From Gammaproteobacteria bacterium (GTDB lineage: Bacteria; Pseudomonadota; Gammaproteobacteria; Pseudomonadales; Halieaceae), in the NCBI GenBank assembly GCA_030426545.1, contig JAUHYL010000025.1:1-49722 (forward strand): a DNA stretch of 49,722 nucleotides, in the 5' to 3' direction. Positions within the stretch are counted from its first letter, which is position 1, and the number at the start of each line of letters is the position of its first letter. Made by a program: the position numbers and the translations under genes. The notes under the pieces were generated by a model that saw only the letters and a list, made by a program, of their open reading frames with translations, did not search any database and was not told the DNA's origin. This document shows positions 38,319 through 49,722 of the stretch, piece after piece.

Positions 38319-38400
38319 GGCGGAACCTGTATTGGCAGGCACGTGTCCGCGGGCGGTAACCAGCTCTGTACCAACAGTGGCAATTAGCAAGGAGTTTTTG

Positions 38401-40323
38401 GTGAAACAGTTCTGCATTGCAATCCTCGCCGTATGTCTGGCTGCGCCCCTGTTTGCCGCGTCACTGGATGCGCCGGGCAGCGCTCCCATGGGCAGCAACA
38501 TCTCGGTCACCTGGGATGCCCCCGGTGAACAGTACGACTCGGTCTACGTGGTGGAGGCAGGCGCGGCTGACGACGCCAGCGGTATTACCTCCGCGTCGAT
38601 CACCAGCGGTAAGAACCCGCTTATCCTCGCCCTGCCTGAAAAGCCCGGCGACTACGAGTTGCGTTACTGGTCGATTCAGCAGAAGCAAGTGCTGGTGAGA
38701 CAGCCACTGAAGATTGAGGACGTGCCCACCAGCCTGCGTGCCGCGGCCAGCGTTCCGCAGGGAGCAGACCTGGAAGTGCATTGGGAAGGCCCTGGCAACG
38801 CCTATGACGGCATAGCTTTGTTTCCTGCTGGCGCGGCAGAAGGCAGCAAGTCGATCACCCGCAAGGCCATTCTGAGTCGTCGCAACCCGCAGGTGTTGCG
38901 CATGCCTGATCAACCCGGCGACTACGAGTTGCGCTACATCACCCGGCGCGAAAAAATTGTCAAGGCAACGCTTCCAGTGACGGTGACCGGTGTCGAGGCT
39001 TCTCTGCAGGCGGCAGACACCGCAGGGATTGGCAGCAACCTGGAAGTGACCTGGGAAGGCCCGGGCACCAATTATGATTTGATCGGCCTGTTTCCCGTTG
39101 GCGCAACCGCCACCGCCCGGGCCGTCAGTAGCCAGGGCATTCTTAACAAAAAGAATCCCATTGTTCTGAAGTTGCCCGAGACTTCGGGAGCGTATGAGTT
39201 GCGCTATGTCACTACCGGCAGCAAAGCGGTGTTGGCCACGCGCCCCCTGACCATCACTGACACCTCTGCGACGATTGTTGCCCCGGAACGCGCGGTTGCC
39301 GCGTGGCCACTGAACGTGGGCTGGACGGGGCCGGGCAATGACTATGATTCGATTGCGCTCTACCCGGCCAATGCGGCAGCGGATGTAAAAGCGGTCACCA
39401 CCGGCTCCATCCTGGGTGGCAAAAATCCGGTGGTGATTAATCTCCCCGATGCGGAGGGGGATTACGAACTTCGCTACATCACCGCGCGCGAACACAAGGT
39501 GTTGGCAGTACAGCCCCTGCTTATCAAGCCTGCGGGCCGTCTCGCCGTCAGTTTCACGGGCCAGCGCGACATCAGCGGCGCGGGCGGGACCGGTGCGGTG
39601 GAACTGGTGCTGGATGCCTCTGGCAGTATGCTGCAGCGCGTGGGCAGCGGCGAACGCCGTATCAGTATTGCCAAAGCGGTATTGACGGACCTGGTGACAA
39701 ACTACCTTGGAGAGAATACCGGCTTTGCGCTGCGTGTTTTTGGCCACAAGGAAGCGGACAGTTGTCGTACTGACCTGGAGATTCCCTTCAGCGCACTGAA
39801 TCGCGAACAGGCCGCCGCCCGCATCGACAGCGTGAATGCCATGAATCTGGCCAGGACACCCATTGCCGATTCATTGGCAAAAGTACCACAGGACCTCGCC
39901 GGTGCCACTGGCCCTAAAACCATCATCCTGATTACCGACGGCGAAGAAACCTGTGACGGCGATCCTGAAGCCGTGATCACCGACCTGCGCAATCGCGGTC
40001 TGGATCTGCGCCTGTCTATTGTGGGCTTTGGCATTGACGACGCGGAGTTGAAGAAAACCTTCAGCCACTGGGCTGAACTTGGCGGCGGCAGCTACTTTGA
40101 TACTACCTCTGCCGAGGAGCTCAGCCGCTCGCTGCGTTACGTGATTTCCGGGCCGTTCCGCGTAGTGAACGCTGCCGGTGAAACCGTGGGGGAGGGTGTG
40201 ATTGGTGGCGCAGAGATTGTGCTCCCCGCGGGAACCTACCGTGTGGAGACGATTGGGGCCAGCCCGAGGTCGATCGAGAACGTGGTAATCAGGCCGCGCG
40301 AGTTGACCGAGGCCAGCTTCTAG
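38401..40323 (+). CDS. Secreted von Willebrand A protein with four 90-residue repeats
   Basis: A 640-residue exported protein. After a signal peptide (residues 1-20) four Ig-like units of exactly 90 residues occupy about 21-110, 111-200, 201-290 and 291-380. Each contains a W-x-G/A-PG-x-x-YD core (for example VTWEGPGTNYDLIGLFP), a KNP or RNP step and a GDYELRYI strand. The vWA domain (about 390-570) has the metal-ion-dependent adhesion motif LVLDASGSM and IILITDGEETCDGDP. A short beta domain closes the protein. The likely role is a periplasmic or surface adhesin/scaffold. The GTG start at 38401 follows AAGGAG at 38389-38394. Confidence 0.8.
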   Translation: MKQFCIAILAVCLAAPLFAASLDAPGSAPMGSNISVTWDAPGEQYDSVYVVEAGAADDASGITSASITSGKNPLILALPEKPGDYELRYWSIQQKQVLVRQPLKIEDVPTSLRAAASVPQGADLEVHWEGPGNAYDGIALFPAGAAEGSKSITRKAILSRRNPQVLRMPDQPGDYELRYITRREKIVKATLPVTVTGVEASLQAADTAGIGSNLEVTWEGPGTNYDLIGLFPVGATATARAVSSQGILNKKNPIVLKLPETSGAYELRYVTTGSKAVLATRPLTITDTSATIVAPERAVAAWPLNVGWTGPGNDYDSIALYPANAAADVKAVTTGSILGGKNPVVINLPDAEGDYELRYITAREHKVLAVQPLLIKPAGRLAVSFTGQRDISGAGGTGAVELVLDASGSMLQRVGSGERRISIAKAVLTDLVTNYLGENTGFALRVFGHKEADSCRTDLEIPFSALNREQAAARIDSVNAMNLARTPIADSLAKVPQDLAGATGPKTIILITDGEETCDGDPEAVITDLRNRGLDLRLSIVGFGIDDAELKKTFSHWAELGGGSYFDTTSAEELSRSLRYVISGPFRVVNAAGETVGEGVIGGAEIVLPAGTYRVETIGASPRSIENVVIRPRELTEASF

Positions 40324-43626: not shown

Positions 43627-44316
43627 CTAGTGGAGTACGCAGGCCTCTCGTTTTCTGCGGTATTCAGGTGCACAAAGCCAGCTGTCACCCGAGTCACTCA
43701 GGTGCGCATTCTCAGGAATTTTCACTGCGATGCATTTGCTGTTTTCCTCTACATAACCTCGCTCGCACTTCCAGCCGCTGGTGTATCCGAGATCAGAGAG
43801 ATAGCCATGCCTCGGTACATCTATCTTGGAACACGTGTCGTTACTTTTCAGGTAGCCGCGCTCGCACGCCCAACCCGGCATGTAGTCGCTACCTACCAGA
43901 TACCCATTTTCAGGGACGGTTATCTTTCTGCAGGTGTCAGCTACAGCTTGATAGCCGCGCTTACATTTCCATCCCGGCCCATAAGTTTGATTCAGCAGAT
44001 ATGCATTGGGTGGTACAACGATCTCACTGCATTTGTTCCCCTGCATCACAAACCCGCGCCTGCACTGCCACCCCGACCCGTAGGACTTCTTGTTCAGAAA
44101 TGCGTTTTCGGGGACAACGATAGCGATGCAGGTACTGTTGGTTTTCCGAAATCCCGGGTTGCAGTCCCATCCGCTGCCATAGCCACTCGGTGTAGCATTG
44201 TTGGGCACGTCAGGCATCGAGTCCTGTGAGAAAACGGCCTGGGGCGAGAATAGCGAAACAAAGAGCGGAATTAGCAGCAGAAACAATCGTCTGCCTGTCA
44301 GGGAATAAGTATACAA
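43627..44316 (-). CDS. Secreted protein of five exact 33-residue cysteine-pair repeats
   Basis: A 229-residue exported protein. A signal peptide covers about residues 1-30 (RLFLLLIPLFVSLFSPQAVF). From residue 46 there are five consecutive units of exactly 33 residues plus a 19-residue partial sixth. Each has the plan Y-G-x-G-W-x-C-x-R-G-Y/F, ten residues between two Cys, and then I-x-V-P-x-N-A-Y-L. A unit thus holds one probable disulfide, giving six in total. Such a rod could be a surface or periplasmic binding or spacer protein. I recognise no named domain. The start is TTG at 44316 with GGAG eight bases upstream. Confidence 0.75.
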   Translation of the reverse strand: MYTYSLTGRRLFLLLIPLFVSLFSPQAVFSQDSMPDVPNNATPSGYGSGWDCNPGFRKTNSTCIAIVVPENAFLNKKSYGSGWQCRRGFVMQGNKCSEIVVPPNAYLLNQTYGPGWKCKRGYQAVADTCRKITVPENGYLVGSDYMPGWACERGYLKSNDTCSKIDVPRHGYLSDLGYTSGWKCERGYVEENSKCIAVKIPENAHLSDSGDSWLCAPEYRRKREACVLH

Positions 44317-44686: not shown

Positions 44687-44968
44687 ATGACTGTGGTCAT
44701 TCTGAAGGTTTGTGTCACGTCGTTGTATCTACTGATGGCAGTGCGGGCATTCCAAAGTGGAACAACCATCGACCGTCTGCTGGGAGTCTATTTGCTGGCA
44801 GGGCTGGTGATGCTGTTCACCTTAGCCAAGTCGATTGCCACGGCCTGCCTGCTGGCAGGCGCAGCCGCGTACCTTGTTAGTCAGGTGCTTACGTCGGCCA
44901 GGTGGGTGAGTCGCGCATTACCGCTGCTGGCAGCTGTGCTGACCGTTGCGTTGTACGCAGTGCAGTAA
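44687..44968 (+). CDS. Small three-helix membrane protein, weakly MrpF-like
   Basis: A 93-residue hydrophobic protein with helices at about residues 2-20, 30-62 and 72-92. The stretch RAFQSGTTIDRLLGVYLLAG faintly recalls subunit F of Mrp/Mnh cation antiporters (R-G-P-T-x-x-D-R), but no other Mrp subunit gene is near, so the resemblance may be fortuitous. It lies just before the transglutaminase/Anbu genes on the same strand with a 146-base gap. Confidence 0.55.
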   Translation: MTVVILKVCVTSLYLLMAVRAFQSGTTIDRLLGVYLLAGLVMLFTLAKSIATACLLAGAAAYLVSQVLTSARWVSRALPLLAAVLTVALYAVQ

Positions 44969-45082
44969 CCCGGCATACGCCCTTCTCCCCTCTTTGTTGA
45001 CCAACTCAATTCGATCTTGCCAGTTCCGCGGTAAGAGAGGACGATGGGTCAAAGGCGTCTCAACTTTTTGATGGAGAGAAAA

Positions 45083-45118
45083 ATGAACAAACGCTTTGTG
45101 TCGCGTGGCCCCAATTGA
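45083..45118 (+). other. Eleven-codon leader ORF overlapping the transglutaminase start
   Basis: ATG at 45083 follows a GGAGAG element and encodes MNKRFVSRGPN before a TGA at 45116-45118. This stop overlaps the TTG start of the transglutaminase gene (TTGA). It may couple translation of the weak TTG to a strong upstream initiation site. A sequencing or evolutionary frameshift is the alternative explanation. Confidence 0.45.
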
Positions 45119-45909
45119 GCGATGTTCTGTTACGGGCCAGTTGTGCGCTGTCTTTTGTCGTAGCAGTTCCCACTCCCATGGTGTTTATGCTGCGTCCGCG
45201 CAGCAGTCCGACACAATGGGTGTCCACTGAGGAGTACCACCTGTCACCGTCACTGAGAGTGACTGAACACACTGACAGTTTTGGCAACCTGTGTCAGCGA
45301 CTGGTCGCGCCGGTCGGTGATTTTGAGATAAACACGTCCGCCCAGGTGCTGGTGTCGCGCACAGCGCCAACAACAAGTGATGCCGGCTTTGTGGATGTGT
45401 CGCTGTTGCCGGAGGAGGTGCTCAGCTTTCTCCTTCCAAGCCGCTATTGCGAGGCCGATCGCTTCGGCAACATGGCGATGGAGATCGTCGCTGATAAACC
45501 GCTCGGCTATGCTCAGGTAGAAGCCATCACGGAATGGGTGCGCGAAAATATTCGATATGTGCCGCTCAGCAGTACTTATCCCATCTCGGCGACCGAGGTG
45601 AACGGCAGGGGGGAAGGGGTATGCCGGGACCTGGCTCATGTGGCGATCGCCTTGTGCCGCGCGCTGTGCATTCCCGCGAGAATGGTTGTGGGCTATCTTT
45701 ACGAGCTGGAACCGATGGACTCACACGCCTGGTTTGAGGCTTTTGTCGGCGGGCAGTGGCACACCTTTGATCCCACCTTCGCGCACGGCCTGGGTTGGCG
45801 CATCGCGGTAGCCCGTGGCAGAGATGCCGCTGATGTCGCGGTTTACAACCAGTACGGTCCGCTGCTGTTGCCGGAAACCATGCATGTGGCGGTGGACAGG
45901 CTGGAGTAG
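45115..45909 (+). CDS. Transglutaminase-like cysteine protease of the Anbu locus
   Basis: A 264-residue protein with a Bact_transglu_N-type beta domain (LRASCALSFVVAVPTPMVFM then TEHTDSFGNLCQRLVAPVGD) and a transglutaminase-like domain. The catalytic Cys is in GRGEGVCRDLAHVAIALCRA, the His in MDSHAWFEAFVGGQWHTF and the Asp in FDPTF. Family members hydrolyse or form isopeptide bonds. No ATG fits; TTG at 45115 restores the family N-terminus and overlaps a leader ORF. Anbu follows 194 bases downstream, and such genes are recurrent companions of alpha-E and ATP-grasp genes, which occur here on the opposite strand. Confidence 0.88.
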   Translation: MSDVLLRASCALSFVVAVPTPMVFMLRPRSSPTQWVSTEEYHLSPSLRVTEHTDSFGNLCQRLVAPVGDFEINTSAQVLVSRTAPTTSDAGFVDVSLLPEEVLSFLLPSRYCEADRFGNMAMEIVADKPLGYAQVEAITEWVRENIRYVPLSSTYPISATEVNGRGEGVCRDLAHVAIALCRALCIPARMVVGYLYELEPMDSHAWFEAFVGGQWHTFDPTFAHGLGWRIAVARGRDAADVAVYNQYGPLLLPETMHVAVDRLE

Positions 45910-46103
45910 CCCAAAGCCGTGTGAATACCGGTTCCCGGCAGCATCCTCGGGGGCAGGGCACCAGGTACTACGGGCTTCAGCAGGCTTGCCGGCCCCTGCG
46001 GCGGGGCTTGCGGCCACTGGAACAAAATACTCCCTTCAACTGGCAAAACCTGCTATTTTGTTTTCAGATCGATTTGCGATTTCGTACAGAGAGTTTCCCC
46101 CTA

Positions 46104-46892
46104 ATGACTTACTGTGTAGCCGTTGCCACTAATGATGGCCTGGTGTTCTGTTCAGACTCCCGCACTAATGCTGGCCCGGACGTGCTGTCTACCTACAGCA
46201 AAATGCACATTTACGAGTTGGACCGTGAACGCATCATCGTCCTGTTGAGCGCGGGCAACCTGGCGACAACCCAGGCTGTGATCAGCCAGATCGATGCCGA
46301 CCTGGAGGATGTGGAGGGCACTTCCCTCAAGACCTGCAAGAAGATGACCGATGTTGCCCGCTACGTGGGCAAGGTAAGTCGTGAGCAGCAAGAGCAGGCA
46401 GACCAGTCGACCGGCAACTCTGATGTCAACACTTCAGCGTCTTTTATCGTCGGCGGCCAGATTTCCGGCGGCGAGGCGTTCATCTACCTGATTTACTCCG
46501 CCGGCAATTATATTTCGGTGTCCGAAGAGACACCTTATCTGCAGATTGGTGAAAGCAAGTACGGAAAGCCGATCCTCGATAGAATATTAACGCCGAGCAC
46601 CAGCCTGGAGGATGCCGCCCGCTGTGCGCTGGTGTCCATGGATTCCACGGTGCGGGCGAACGCCACAGTGGGGCCTCCGCTGGAGGTGTTGGTCTACGAA
46701 AACGACACTTTCGAAACAGACCACTACATCAAGTTGAATGCGGACGATTCCTACCTGCTGACACTGCACAAAGCCTGGAATGAGTCGCTAAAAACTGCGT
46801 TCCAGGAGTTGCCGCTGCTTGACTGGGAAAAACGTTCAGCACCGCCGTTGACCGCAGTCGTTCCCCGCGGCGCCCCGCCTAAAGGCGACTAG
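46104..46892 (+). CDS. anbu: Anbu: proteasome-type Ntn-hydrolase
   Basis: A 262-residue self-compartmentalising protease of the Anbu (ancestral beta subunit, proteasome-type) family. The start MTYCVAVATNDGLVFCSDSR exposes Thr2 as the probable nucleophile after Met removal; SDSRTNAGPDVLSTYSKMHI is the family signature and Lys near residue 34 is the expected catalytic Lys. SFIVGGQISGGEAFIYLIYS and KYGKPILDRILTP are typical. The ORF extends upstream to 45921 but that part lacks homology-like character. No unfoldase ATPase gene accompanies it, as usual for Anbu. The 3' end overlaps the convergent peptidase gene by 14 bases. Confidence 0.9.
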   Translation: MTYCVAVATNDGLVFCSDSRTNAGPDVLSTYSKMHIYELDRERIIVLLSAGNLATTQAVISQIDADLEDVEGTSLKTCKKMTDVARYVGKVSREQQEQADQSTGNSDVNTSASFIVGGQISGGEAFIYLIYSAGNYISVSEETPYLQIGESKYGKPILDRILTPSTSLEDAARCALVSMDSTVRANATVGPPLEVLVYENDTFETDHYIKLNADDSYLLTLHKAWNESLKTAFQELPLLDWEKRSAPPLTAVVPRGAPPKGD

Positions 46893-47907
46893 CCACCAGT
46901 GCGTCGATGGTTTGCTGTACGAACGTGAGTTTTTCAGCAACCGCGCCGTTGATAACAAACGGATACGGGTCACGTAGACCAAGGCTTCGATTGGTTTCGT
47001 TCAGGCTGACAATAAAGTCGCTCCATAACGCCAGTTGACCCGGCATGCCGTCGCTATCGGTTTTTGGTGTAATCAATCCATAGGCGATAGCCGTTTCCAG
47101 TGTGTCCTTGAGGTGCAGGTAGTGCGCAAAGCACTCTGCCCAGTCCTCCAGTGGGTGACTGCTTGCGTACGCGCTGATAAAGAGTTGCCCCCAATCGGGT
47201 GGTGGCCCGTTATCGTAGTAGATGCGTAACGCGGTCTCGTAGTTCAAGGTCGGATCGCCGAACAGGGTGACGAAGCGAGCGCTGTCAGTCACCAGTTGAG
47301 GATAGAAATAGTGCCCGGCCTCATGTCTGAAATGCCCGAGTAGCGTTCGGTAGCGCTCTCCTGATAACTCGCGCTGCTGCACTCTTTGTATCTCGTCAGC
47401 TTCCATCAGGTTAACGGTGATAAGGCCATCCTTGTGTCCGGTGCTCACGAACTGTTCCAGTACATCCGGGTGGCTGCGCTTGTCTTCGATAAAATCGAAA
47501 CGCATGGGGCCGGCGTGATTGCCATTTCCCGCATCAACCTGCAAGCCGATAGCACCAAGCCCCGCCACGCAGCGCCTTTTGGCGCTTTCCAGCCGCTGCC
47601 ATCGACTCAGGTTCTTCTTGCGCGTGACAACAGGGATCGTGCGATTGAGCTGGCAGGTGGTGCAAAGCGCCGTCGTGTCAGAATGTTCGGCCAGCGGCAC
47701 GAGGCCGTTGCAGACGCCGTACAGTCTGCGATTGGCGCAAAGCTGGAAGAGGTTGCCCTCGCCGTCCGACAATGTTCCGTCGGGCGTTTTGCTTACGCTG
47801 AGCATTTGTGAGGTCGCCGGGTCGAAACCCAATAGTCGGCCGCAGCTGCCACACTCGGTGTTGTCGTGAAAGACGGGCTGCGTGCACGCGCAATAGAGTG
47901 GACGCAT
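46879..47907 (-). CDS. Zinc-ribbon zinc metallopeptidase of the Anbu/alpha-E locus
   Basis: A 342-residue protein. The N-terminal zinc ribbon uses Cys pairs (YCACTQPVF with ECGSCGRLLGF, and later CTTCQLNRT). The peptidase part has the HExxH motif RHEAGHYFYP at residues 195-199 and DWAECFAHYLHL (third-ligand Glu) about 60 residues on. This architecture is the putative zinc-binding peptidase family that accompanies alpha-E and circularly permuted ATP-grasp genes. The protease is probably cytoplasmic, acting on the products of the neighbouring ligase. It follows the alpha-E gene after two bases, so the three leftward genes form one operon. Confidence 0.85.
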   Translation of the reverse strand: MRPLYCACTQPVFHDNTECGSCGRLLGFDPATSQMLSVSKTPDGTLSDGEGNLFQLCANRRLYGVCNGLVPLAEHSDTTALCTTCQLNRTIPVVTRKKNLSRWQRLESAKRRCVAGLGAIGLQVDAGNGNHAGPMRFDFIEDKRSHPDVLEQFVSTGHKDGLITVNLMEADEIQRVQQRELSGERYRTLLGHFRHEAGHYFYPQLVTDSARFVTLFGDPTLNYETALRIYYDNGPPPDWGQLFISAYASSHPLEDWAECFAHYLHLKDTLETAIAYGLITPKTDSDGMPGQLALWSDFIVSLNETNRSLGLRDPYPFVINGAVAEKLTFVQQTIDALVASRL

Positions 47908-47909
47908 TT

Positions 47910-48851
47910 TTATCGAGCCGGACTGAACCAGGTGTCGTGAATAGCCGAGTGAATGGCGAGGAGTTCAATTTGCAGATCATCAATCAGGTCATGCAATTCC
48001 ACGCCGGTTGGCACTCCCCCGAACTCGCTGGAACTGCCGGGTTTGAGCTTGCGCAATAGTGAGCGCACCACCTTGATTGCCCTGGAGTTATCAGGAAGCA
48101 GTTTCATGCTCGATTCGAGCTCCCGGAGGCTGTGCACCAGGGCACGGGGAAAGTGCTCGTCATGAAGCAGGAAGTTGACGACGTCGGACGGGTTTACGTT
48201 GGAGCGCACGCTCAGGCGATACATCTGGTAGGCGCTGAGTGATTGCAACACGCTGATCCACAAAACATTCTGATAAGGTAAGCGGGCCTCGTCCCCTCCA
48301 ATCAGATCTGCGGTGCCCACATCAATAATGCGGCTGATCATGTCGGCCCGTTCCAACATGCGGCCCATGCGTAAGAACTGATAGGCTGCATCGTGACTCA
48401 TCGTGCCAGACAGCATGCCCGTAATTTGCTGGCTGGACTTGATAATGTTGTTCAGGACGGTATGGCGCGAGTCTCGCGGCAGCCCCTTACTGCGGCGCTT
48501 GACAACACTGAGATACAAGCTGTTGATCTGTTCCCAGGATTCACTGGGCAAAATTTCCCGGGTGGTTCGCATATTTTCACGGGCGCCTTTAACTGAATTC
48601 ACCAGAGATGAGTGGTTCTCCTCCTCAGAAAACACGTAGCGAATTACATTGGCTTCCGTAGCGGCACCCGGCAGGCTCGCAAAATGCTCCTTGGCTCCCA
48701 GTACCTCCAGCAACAATTCCCAGTCAGGTTGTAGCGCGCGGGGCAGGTCCAGGATGGATTGATGACGTACCAGAATGAGACGCGCGGTATCCTCTGCTCT
48801 CTCGAGGTACCGCGCCAGCCAGTAAACTCGTTCTGCAACTCGCGACAACAT
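47910..48851 (-). CDS. Alpha-E domain protein
   Basis: A 313-residue all-alpha protein of the alpha-E family. MLSRVAERVYWLARYLERAE then DTARLILVRH is the standard opening; NARENMRTTREILPSE-like text (here KGARENMRTTREILPSESWE), MSHDAAYQFLRMGRMLERAD and PRALVHSLRELESSMKLLP are characteristic. The biochemical role is not established; the family is tied by gene neighbourhood to circularly permuted ATP-grasp ligases and transglutaminases. The start overlaps the ATP-grasp stop (ATGA). Confidence 0.93.
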   Translation of the reverse strand: MLSRVAERVYWLARYLERAEDTARLILVRHQSILDLPRALQPDWELLLEVLGAKEHFASLPGAATEANVIRYVFSEEENHSSLVNSVKGARENMRTTREILPSESWEQINSLYLSVVKRRSKGLPRDSRHTVLNNIIKSSQQITGMLSGTMSHDAAYQFLRMGRMLERADMISRIIDVGTADLIGGDEARLPYQNVLWISVLQSLSAYQMYRLSVRSNVNPSDVVNFLLHDEHFPRALVHSLRELESSMKLLPDNSRAIKVVRSLLRKLKPGSSSEFGGVPTGVELHDLIDDLQIELLAIHSAIHDTWFSPAR

Positions 48852-49722
48852 CAGCTGGCATCCATATCGACGATCCAGGTGTCTTTACTGCCGCCGCCCT
48901 GGGAAGAATTCACCACCAGTGAACCCTTACGCAGAGCAACCCGCGTCAGTCCACCGGCAGTCACGTAGTCACTTTCGCCCTGCAAAATAAAAGGCCGCAA
49001 ATCCAGGTGCCTTGGCTCAATATTCCTGCCGCACAGCGTAGCGGCCGTAGACAGTGCAAGGGTGGGCTGTGCCATGTAGTTGCGTGGGTTCTTCTTGATT
49101 AAATCAGCGAATTGCTGGCGTTCCTTCTTGGTGGCCGCGGGCCCAACCAACATACCGTAACCGCCAGACTCATTCGCCGGTTTCACCACCATTGAATCAA
49201 GATTGGCCAGTACATGGTTCATGTGCTTCTTATTCATGCATAGATAAGAAGGCACGTTCGGAATAATGGGATCCTGATCAAGATAGTATTTAATTATTGC
49301 TGGCACATAGGTGTAGACAACCTTGTCGTCAGCGACGCCAGAACCTGGCGCATTGGCTATGCCGACATTACCCTTACGCCACGCGCGGAACAGTCCCGGC
49401 GTTCCCAGCATGGAGTTCGGGTGAAAAACTTCCGGATCCATAAAATCATCATTGATGCGCCGGTAAATCACGTCGACTCGCTCCAGTCCGCCAATGGTGC
49501 GCATGTAAACCTTGTCGTCGGAGTCAACTACCAGGTCTGAGCCCTCCACCAGTTCCGCGCCCATGCGCTGGGCCAGATAAGCGTGCTCGAAATAAGCGGA
49601 ATTGAAGATGCCCGGCGTCATTACCGCAATCTCCGGCCTGACACCCTGACGGGGCGAAATGGACGTGAGCATATCGAACAACTGGGAGGGGTAGTCGGTT
49701 ACCGGCTGTATAAAGTACTTTT
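48851..49722 (-). CDS. Circularly permuted ATP-grasp protein, partial
   Basis: C-terminal part (about 289 codons) of an ATP-grasp ligase-like protein whose gene enters from the right edge. The visible frame runs to 49722 without a start. Landmarks: IAVMTPGIFNSAYFEHAYLA, QRMGAELVEGSDLVVD, VDVIYRRINDDFMDPEVF and LDSMVVKPANESGGYGMLVG. These define the CP_ATPgrasp family, proposed to make peptide or isopeptide bonds on an unknown substrate. It is the first gene of the leftward ATP-grasp/alpha-E/peptidase operon, overlapping alpha-E by one base of the stop in an ATGA junction. The missing N-terminus prevents judging completeness. Confidence 0.92.
   Translation of the reverse strand, partial: KYFIQPVTDYPSQLFDMLTSISPRQGVRPEIAVMTPGIFNSAYFEHAYLAQRMGAELVEGSDLVVDSDDKVYMRTIGGLERVDVIYRRINDDFMDPEVFHPNSMLGTPGLFRAWRKGNVGIANAPGSGVADDKVVYTYVPAIIKYYLDQDPIIPNVPSYLCMNKKHMNHVLANLDSMVVKPANESGGYGMLVGPAATKKERQQFADLIKKNPRNYMAQPTLALSTAATLCGRNIEPRHLDLRPFILQGESDYVTAGGLTRVALRKGSLVVNSSQGGGSKDTWIVDMDAS

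What the first reader, a model, noticed from the sequence alone, without database searches (positions are those of the whole stretch)
44687..49722. Anbu locus split into two convergent arms with leader-coupled transglutaminase and zinc peptidase
Transglutaminase and Anbu run rightward, and a zinc-ribbon peptidase, alpha-E and circularly permuted ATP-grasp run leftward, meeting with a 14-base overlap of Anbu and peptidase. Anbu, alpha-E, ATP-grasp and transglutaminase are known neighbours, but their joint function and substrate are unknown. The convergent arrangement with an overlapping peptidase, and a small membrane protein just upstream, suggests a peptide or isopeptide tag that is made by the ligase, cut by transglutaminase/peptidase and processed by Anbu. 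The tagging model is inference.
Basis: partly seen in the sequence, partly recalled or inferred. Interest (0 to 1): 0.7.

Follow-up and report, generated by a model that had tools for sequence, protein, structure and literature searches.

The report
Anbu operon variant with facing metallopeptidase
A little-understood bacterial relative of the proteasome, Anbu, sits tail to tail with a zinc-dependent peptidase gene, an arrangement that recurs in many gammaproteobacterial families and suggests the peptidase is an overlooked partner of the Anbu system.

Summary
Transglutaminase and Anbu (+) face Peptidase_Mx, Alpha-E and circularly permuted ATP-grasp (-), with a 14-base tail overlap. Two corrections: the contig ends inside the ATP-grasp, and the 93-residue membrane protein also occurs in Anbu-less genomes of the genus, so it is not part of the system.

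Anbu, Alpha-E, ATP-grasp and transglutaminase are a published operon, and the tagging idea is published too. What I did not find described is the peptidase as recurrent partner. It lies within 8 kb of Anbu in 45 fetched loci, window included. It faces Anbu in 43, from 22 family codes plus one MAG, and is codirectional in 2, one genus. Ends lie within 120 nt in 37, but spacing runs from 74 nt overlap to 3.6 kb gap: facing is conserved, overlap is not. Distances of Anbu, peptidase and Alpha-E correlate; catalytic residues are conserved. Outside this class linkage is rare.

Best reading: a ligase-plus-hydrolases system that makes and cleaves an unknown amide conjugate, the zinc peptidase replacing or supplementing transglutaminase. 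Substrate and function are inferred.

The parts
45083..45118 (+). 11-codon leader ORF whose TGA overlaps the TTG start of transglutaminase (possible translational coupling)
   Evidence: read from the sequence; absent from the aligned locus L051
45115..45909 (+). transglutaminase-like cysteine hydrolase, 264 aa, TTG start; C170, H204, D219 conserved
   Evidence: PF01841 and PF08379; start aligned with the ATG of L051; C170 100%, H204 96%, D219 100% of 23 rows; solved relative 3isr
46104..46892 (+). Anbu, Ntn-hydrolase proteasome homologue; Thr1, Asp17 and Lys32 after the initiator Met
   Evidence: PF00227; solved Anbu matches; alignment of 12 and 81 rows. The ORF list extends it to a GTG at 45921
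46879..46892 (.). 14-base tail-to-tail overlap of Anbu and Peptidase_Mx
   Evidence: overlap or gap varies widely among relatives
46879..47907 (-). Peptidase_Mx zinc metallopeptidase with N-terminal double zinc ribbon; H195-E196-x-x-H199, E254-D255, E258; eight ribbon Cys
   Evidence: PF15887 and PF10005; HExxH and E254/D255/E258 invariant in 62 rows, the eight Cys 97-100%
47910..48851 (-). Alpha-E helical protein with two Glu-Arg motifs (E17-R18, E167-R168)
   Evidence: PF04168; motifs invariant in 60 rows; AlphaFold2 model pLDDT 85.4, all helical
48851..49720 (-). circularly permuted type 2 ATP-grasp ligase, 3' 289 codons only, cut by the contig end
   Evidence: PF14403; contig ends at 49722; solved relative 3n6x, a putative glutathionylspermidine synthase
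44687..44968 (+).
   Evidence: no Pfam or NCBIfam match; homologues (E below 1e-8) in 8 other same-genus genomes, 4 of which have no Anbu match (one of the 4 is only 74% complete)

Best explanation
This is a variant of the Anbu amidoligase system in which a Peptidase_Mx zinc metallopeptidase is a regular member. Shown: the four genes ATP-grasp, Alpha-E, Peptidase_Mx and Anbu form a recurring module in Gammaproteobacteria, with Anbu and the peptidase facing each other in nearly all linked loci; transglutaminase is an optional fifth gene, present here. Shown by sequence: catalytic residues of all three hydrolases are intact. Inferred: the ATP-grasp ligase, with Alpha-E as its partner, uses ATP to join an amine (amino acid, peptide or polyamine) to a carboxylate by an amide bond; Anbu, Peptidase_Mx and, when present, transglutaminase cut that bond or trim the product. 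Inferred: Peptidase_Mx takes the role of the transglutaminase-type hydrolase, since in the window's type of locus it follows Alpha-E where canonical loci (L016, L070) have transglutaminase. Inferred: the arms are expressed separately, and the exact overlap is incidental. Whether the product is a protein conjugate or a small metabolite is not settled.
For: Convergent Anbu/Mx in 43 of 45 linked loci, 22 family codes plus a MAG, against one codirectional genus. Two placements of ATP-grasp/Alpha-E (27 and 14 of the 43; 2 not seen), but Anbu and Mx face each other in both. Co-occurrence: 18 of 28 genomes with Anbu hold Mx against 0 of 29 without; 44 of 57 strong-Mx genomes of the class hold Anbu against 55 of 313 others, 27 of the 44 within 8 kb; Mx with Alpha-E 59 of 60 against 112 of 239. 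Correlated divergence: Mantel r 0.76 Anbu-Mx, 0.73 Anbu-AE, 0.76 Mx-AE, 0 of 2000 permutations each, 35 of 43 listed loci used, one of them codirectional. Catalytic residues conserved. Outside Gammaproteobacteria, Mx adjoins Alpha-E in Caballeronia and ATP-grasp in Hymenobacter. Literature: the Y. bercovieri operon ATP-grasp releases phosphate from ATP (abstract and passages).
Against: No activity was tested here. In the paper whose passages I read, Anbu proteins of three species cut none of the tested substrates and no specific complex among Y. bercovieri operon proteins was detected. In the phylum sample only 4 of 116 Anbu genes have Mx within 8 kb, so linkage is mainly gammaproteobacterial. 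Of 12 Mx stretches fetched because Mx lay away from the other genes (L085-L095, L097), 11 showed no system gene nearby and 1 (L093) did; an Azospirillum plasmid locus also shows none. Transglutaminase and Mx coexist in 8 convergent loci, so replacement is not strict. Anbu also faces the ligase arm in some loci without Mx, so facing is not specific to Mx. Co-occurrence tests are not corrected for phylogeny or genome size. The Mx structure prediction failed (pLDDT 39).
Confidence: 0.5

Rival explanations
1. It is just the known Anbu operon, rearranged; the peptidase is an unrelated gene that landed beside Anbu in an ancestor and hitch-hikes by descent and transfer.
For: The other four families are the published operon. 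In a phylum-wide sample 89 of 96 Anbu/Alpha-E neighbours are codirectional and only 4 of 116 Anbu genes have Mx within 8 kb, although 43 genomes hold both. 11 of 12 Mx stretches chosen away from the other genes show no system gene nearby.
Against: 59 of 60 Mx genomes hold Alpha-E. On the Anbu tree the Mx label needs 13 changes, at least 8 on starred branches, so the pairing was gained or lost repeatedly. Two gene orders keep Anbu and Mx facing. Mx adjoins Alpha-E or ATP-grasp without Anbu in other lineages.
Confidence: 0.2
2. The product is a small-molecule amide (for example an amino acid or peptide joined to a polyamine, like glutathionylspermidine) used as a nitrogen store, not a protein tag; hydrolases recover the nitrogen.
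For: The solved relative of the ligase is annotated as a putative glutathionylspermidine synthase (name only). Canonical Anbu genes are higher on nitrate than on ammonium in P. putida (PP_2685 and PP_2688, log2 4.4 and 4.0), and ATP-grasp, Alpha-E and transglutaminase genes depend on NtrC in B. cenocepacia. On an A. caldus megaplasmid glnL and ntrC lie about 4 kb from Anbu, with a transposase gene between.
Against: In Mx-paired loci sigma-54-like sites upstream of ATP-grasp are rare (2 of 38) against 8 of 26 in loci without Mx beside Anbu, so nitrogen control may not apply to this variant. No substrate evidence.
Confidence: 0.2
3. The antisense overlap itself is the point: convergent transcripts pair at their 3' ends and couple the expression of the two arms.
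For: 27 of 43 convergent loci overlap, and no terminator-like site lies within 250 bases of the overlap in the window.
Against: Spacing runs from 74 nt overlap to 3.6 kb gap, and 16 of 43 do not overlap; the shared reading phase within the own family is what descent without frameshift would give.
Confidence: 0.07
4. One reading: an isopeptide tag is made and removed, with the small membrane protein upstream as a component or substrate.
For: Tagging by the operon's ligating enzymes and removal by Anbu is a published hypothesis.
Against: The membrane protein has homologues in same-genus genomes without an Anbu match, and no other fetched Anbu locus showed it.
Confidence: 0.03

Closest known systems
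Anbu operon (ATP-grasp, Alpha-E, transglutaminase, Anbu), as in Yersinia bercovieri; Iyer et al. 2009 and Valas and Bourne 2008 as cited in PMC5666114 and PMC6376114
   Same: Four of the five families; Thr1, Asp17 and Lys32(33) of Anbu; proposed ligase-plus-hydrolase logic
   Different: Published order is four genes in one operon; here Anbu faces the ligase arm and Peptidase_Mx is added. Sigma-54-like sites are rarer in Mx-paired loci
Peptidase_Mx / former DUF2248 (PF15887 with PF10005)
   Same: Full-length match, HExxH signature; zincin fold predicted for DUF2248 in PMC3650047 (passages)
   Different: No function known to me; linkage to Anbu was not named in the passages I read
Type with Mx facing Alpha-E and no Anbu in the locus (Caballeronia sp. 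Lep1P3; G105, G313)
   Same: Ligase, Alpha-E, Mx and a transglutaminase in one locus, Mx tail to tail with a system gene
   Different: Anbu not in the locus
Glutathionylspermidine synthase-like ligases (3n6x)
   Same: Sequence match over the C-terminal part of the ATP-grasp (E 1e-97)
   Different: The entry's function is putative; whether the full window protein has other domains cannot be seen

Membership tests
Anbu (bacterial proteasome-related Ntn hydrolase) | N-terminal Thr after the initiator Met, with Asp17 and Lys32(33) | tested here: met
   residue set from PMC6376114
Anbu (bacterial proteasome-related Ntn hydrolase) | Sequence match to solved Anbu proteins over most of the length | tested here: met
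   5loy, 5nyw, 5lox, 5nyj, 5nyf at 4e-78 to 2e-57, residues 2 to about 240 of 262
Anbu (bacterial proteasome-related Ntn hydrolase) | Open-ring or lock-washer assembly | not testable with these tools
   needs purified protein
Published Anbu operon | ATP-grasp, Alpha-E, transglutaminase and Anbu together in one locus | tested here: met
   ATP-grasp truncated by the contig end
Published Anbu operon | The genes form one operon in conserved order, so one strand | tested here: not met
   two convergent arms; 89 of 96 neighbours in a phylum sample are codirectional. It is therefore filed as a variant
Published Anbu operon | Nitrogen-limitation (NtrC/sigma-54) control | tested here: inconclusive
   0 of 13 own-family ATP-grasp genes have a site at 10 of 12 or better within 300 bases upstream, but a wider look shows one at the annotated ORF start of L058, which may lie upstream of the true start; the window's own ATP-grasp promoter is off the contig; the consensus is recalled
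Peptidase_Mx (PF15887) | Profile match over the whole domain, and HExxH with downstream acidic residues | tested here: met
Peptidase_Mx (PF15887) | Zincin fold | tested here: inconclusive
   AlphaFold2 model unusable (pLDDT 39.4, two-row alignment); no PDB relative by sequence up to E 1
Known anti-phage defence system | Match to a PADLOC model | tested here: not met
   0 families for 5 proteins at E 0.01

The most novel reading that the evidence does not exclude
Peptidase_Mx is the missing partner of Anbu: it acts on the same conjugate just before Anbu, or activates it, so that the published failure to find Anbu activity in vitro reflects an absent companion peptidase or the wrong substrate. 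The two form a conserved hydrolase pair whose genes are kept tail to tail while the ligase genes move around them.
Probability: 0.15. Interest if true: 0.75.

Novelty: new variant of a known kind. Interest (0 to 1): 0.5.

Why it matters
Anbu has solved structures, but in the papers whose passages I read no substrate or activity is known and its role is left open. A second predicted hydrolase that tracks Anbu and Alpha-E across many families, and faces Anbu in nearly every linked locus, gives a concrete new protein to test with it. The variant also shows fewer sigma-54-like sites, so it may offer a natural contrast to the nitrogen-regulated canonical operon.

Tried and rejected
Rejected: the membrane protein as a component; the leader as a conserved element (one relative compared); the overlap length as a constrained feature; a match to a catalogued defence system.

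Rows dropped or limited before counts. The Anbu tree (quick method, SH-aLRT only) left out five loci judged duplicates or fragments, rows without the exact string MTYC and rows of 200 residues or fewer, leaving 68 rows with 38 of the 45 Mx loci. The Mantel test used 35 of 43 listed loci; that list is not the 43 convergent loci (it holds L139, codirectional, and lacks L057). The Alpha-E match list was cut by the tool, so 96 of 116 is a lower bound. Of the 60 Mx genomes in the phylum sample, two (G238, G286) have only weak fragments and one (G227) a copy with a stop; 59 of 60 was counted by eye. In the class sample I counted as strong the 57 genomes with 250 bits or more out of 71 with any match. 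The 8 kb limit leaves out G553 (Mx convergent, 9.9 kb away), G694 (about 13 kb, divergent) and G365 (about 35 kb). Genomes with Mx and Anbu on different contigs (for example G035) were not counted as linked or unlinked. L006 may be the same genome as one of the G handles. In one search the 'no Mx' group was chosen by me, includes near-duplicates and includes L081-L084, which have Mx but no Anbu detected; collapsed, the contrast is 6 of 24 against 2 of 38, p 0.047. Absence of transglutaminase near Anbu in G032 is unsure because its contig starts just before the gene.
Full report
WHAT IS THERE. Transglutaminase (45115-45909) and Anbu (46104-46892) run right; Peptidase_Mx (46879-47907), Alpha-E (47910-48851) and ATP-grasp (48851-49720, cut by the contig end) run left. 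The left-running genes are packed with a 2-base gap and a 1-base overlap, so they look like one operon. The 14-base overlap is exact.

The gene calls and layout are right. The small membrane protein is not a partner: of 57 genomes (own included) 11 have a match at E 0.01 or better; besides the window, the 8 good ones (E below 1e-8) are all in the same genus, and four of those genomes (G003, G004, G010, G013; G003 only 74% complete) have no Anbu match. The 11-codon leader overlaps the TTG start, but in the closest co-directional relative (L051 of G022, 69% identical transglutaminase) the gene starts at an aligned ATG without it. The transglutaminase orthologue (over 50% identity) is in 13 of the 57 genomes, and is seen beside Anbu only in the window, G022 (same direction) and G035 (divergent); in three same-genus genomes it sits elsewhere, between genes whose sequences I recognise as tex and dinB (recalled names, no call).

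THE PEPTIDASE IS A RECURRENT PARTNER. Among the 57 genomes, Anbu is in 28, Peptidase_Mx in 18, Alpha-E in 31; all 18 Mx genomes have Anbu, none of the 29 without Anbu has Mx (Fisher 4e-8, not corrected for relatedness). In 299 genomes of the phylum, Mx is in 60, Anbu in 115, Alpha-E in 171; Mx genomes hold Anbu in 43 of 60 (72 of 239 otherwise) and Alpha-E in 59 of 60 (112 of 239 otherwise). In 370 genomes of the class, 57 have a strong Mx match and 44 of those hold Anbu, against 55 of 313; in 27 of the 44 the two lie within 8 kb. Against this, in the phylum sample only 4 of the 43 genomes with both have them within 8 kb, and of 12 Mx stretches that I fetched because Mx lay apart, 11 show no other system gene.

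FACING IS CONSERVED, OVERLAP IS NOT. I fetched the neighbourhoods and searched them with profiles made from the window proteins: the Anbu loci listed other than the window's, and every further phylum- or class-sample genome in which Mx lay within 8 kb of Anbu, plus some without. Of 45 loci with Mx within 8 kb of Anbu, window included, 43 are convergent (16 in the own family, 26 genomes of other families, one MAG record) and 2 are codirectional (G590, G660, one genus). The convergent ones carry 22 family codes. Distances run from 74 nt overlap to a 3641 nt gap; 27 overlap, and 37 lie within 120 nt. Two layouts recur: Anbu facing Mx-Alpha-E-ATP-grasp (27, the window's, one of them with a fused ATP-grasp/Alpha-E), and Mx facing Anbu with ATP-grasp-Alpha-E divergent on Anbu's other side (14); 2 loci show neither. 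By contrast, in the phylum sample 89 of 96 Anbu/Alpha-E neighbours are codirectional, 4 convergent, 3 divergent; the four Anbu genes there with Mx nearby are all convergent with it and all among these seven exceptions. In loci without Mx, Anbu may also face the ligase arm directly or through transglutaminase (for example L009, L064, L142, L145), so facing is not confined to Mx.

ONE MODULE, SHARED HISTORY. Pairwise distances of Anbu, Mx and Alpha-E correlate (r 0.73 to 0.76; 0 of 2000 permutations; 35 of 43 listed loci). The own family holds three versions of the module about as different from each other (Anbu 51-53% identity between groups) as the median pair over all the loci used (52%), which suggests exchange of the module as a unit. 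On the Anbu tree the Mx label needs 13 changes, at least 8 on well-supported branches, against 22 in shuffles: gained or lost repeatedly, yet clustered.

CATALYTIC STATE. Mx: H195, E196, H199, E254, D255, E258 invariant in 62 rows, eight ribbon cysteines 97-100%. Transglutaminase: C170 100%, H204 96%, D219 100% of 23 rows. Anbu: Thr1 and Asp17 100%, Lys32 98% of 81 rows. Alpha-E: E17, R18, E167, R168 100% of 60 rows (rows include close relatives). Nothing in these residues suggests decay.

REGULATION. Published canonical genes respond to nitrogen source or NtrC (passages), Anbu appears among enriched predicted sigma-54 targets (passage), and on the A. caldus megaplasmid glnL and ntrC lie about 4 kb from Anbu with a transposase gene between. 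Sites matching a recalled sigma-54 consensus at 10 of 12 or better lie within 300 bases upstream of ATP-grasp in 8 of 26 genes in loci without Mx beside Anbu, in 0 of 13 own-family Mx-paired loci and in 2 of 25 other Mx-paired loci; background 1.15% per 300 bases. With a wider range one own-family locus (L058) has such a site at its annotated ORF start, possibly upstream of the true start. The contrast is modest (p 0.011; 0.047 after collapsing near-duplicates), and the window's own ATP-grasp promoter is not in view.

HOW IT MOST LIKELY WORKS. ATP-grasp enzymes make amide bonds through an acyl phosphate, and phosphate release from ATP by the Y. bercovieri enzyme is reported (passages). Three predicted hydrolases stand beside it here. 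The simplest reading is a cycle that makes and cleaves one amide conjugate, Mx being a second or alternative hydrolase. The substrate is unknown; a protein tag and a small metabolite remain open.

NOVELTY. Four of five components, their co-occurrence and the tag hypothesis are known. The peptidase as a widespread tail-to-tail partner was not named in the passages I read or seen in my search listings, but the key 2009 paper could not be read. I file it as a new variant of a known kind.

Noticed in passing
43627-44316 -: Secreted-looking protein with cysteine-rich repeats; best Pfam match EGF_MSP1_1 (E 4.5e-9, three stretches). That this is unusual in a bacterium is my recollection.
   Followed up: no
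38332-40323 +: Large protein with four similar N-terminal repeats (by eye) and a C-terminal von Willebrand factor A domain.
   Followed up: no
L159 (NZ_CP005987.1, Acidithiobacillus caldus megaplasmid): Anbu, transglutaminase, ATP-grasp and Alpha-E genes lie about 4 kb from glnL and ntrC, with a transposase gene between: a possible genomic link to nitrogen control.
   Followed up: partly
L157 (NZ_CP095070.1, Hymenobacter volaticus plasmid): A Bacteroidota plasmid holds Peptidase_Mx divergent from ATP-grasp, Alpha-E and transglutaminase, without Anbu in view; the peptidase is annotated in two overlapping pieces.
   Followed up: no
L050, L054, L068 (same genus as the window): Three distinct versions of the Anbu/Mx module occur within one genus, and G002 and G031 carry a second Anbu gene.
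   Followed up: partly
L156 (Caballeronia sp. Lep1P3), L082, L083: Peptidase_Mx is tail to tail with Alpha-E in loci without Anbu, a second facing arrangement of the same peptidase.
   Followed up: partly
Alpha-E model m17bb5ce63f8e (window 47910-48851): Top fold-search row is the NasR transcription antiterminator (4akk), but at a level that may be only a common helical arrangement.
   Followed up: partly
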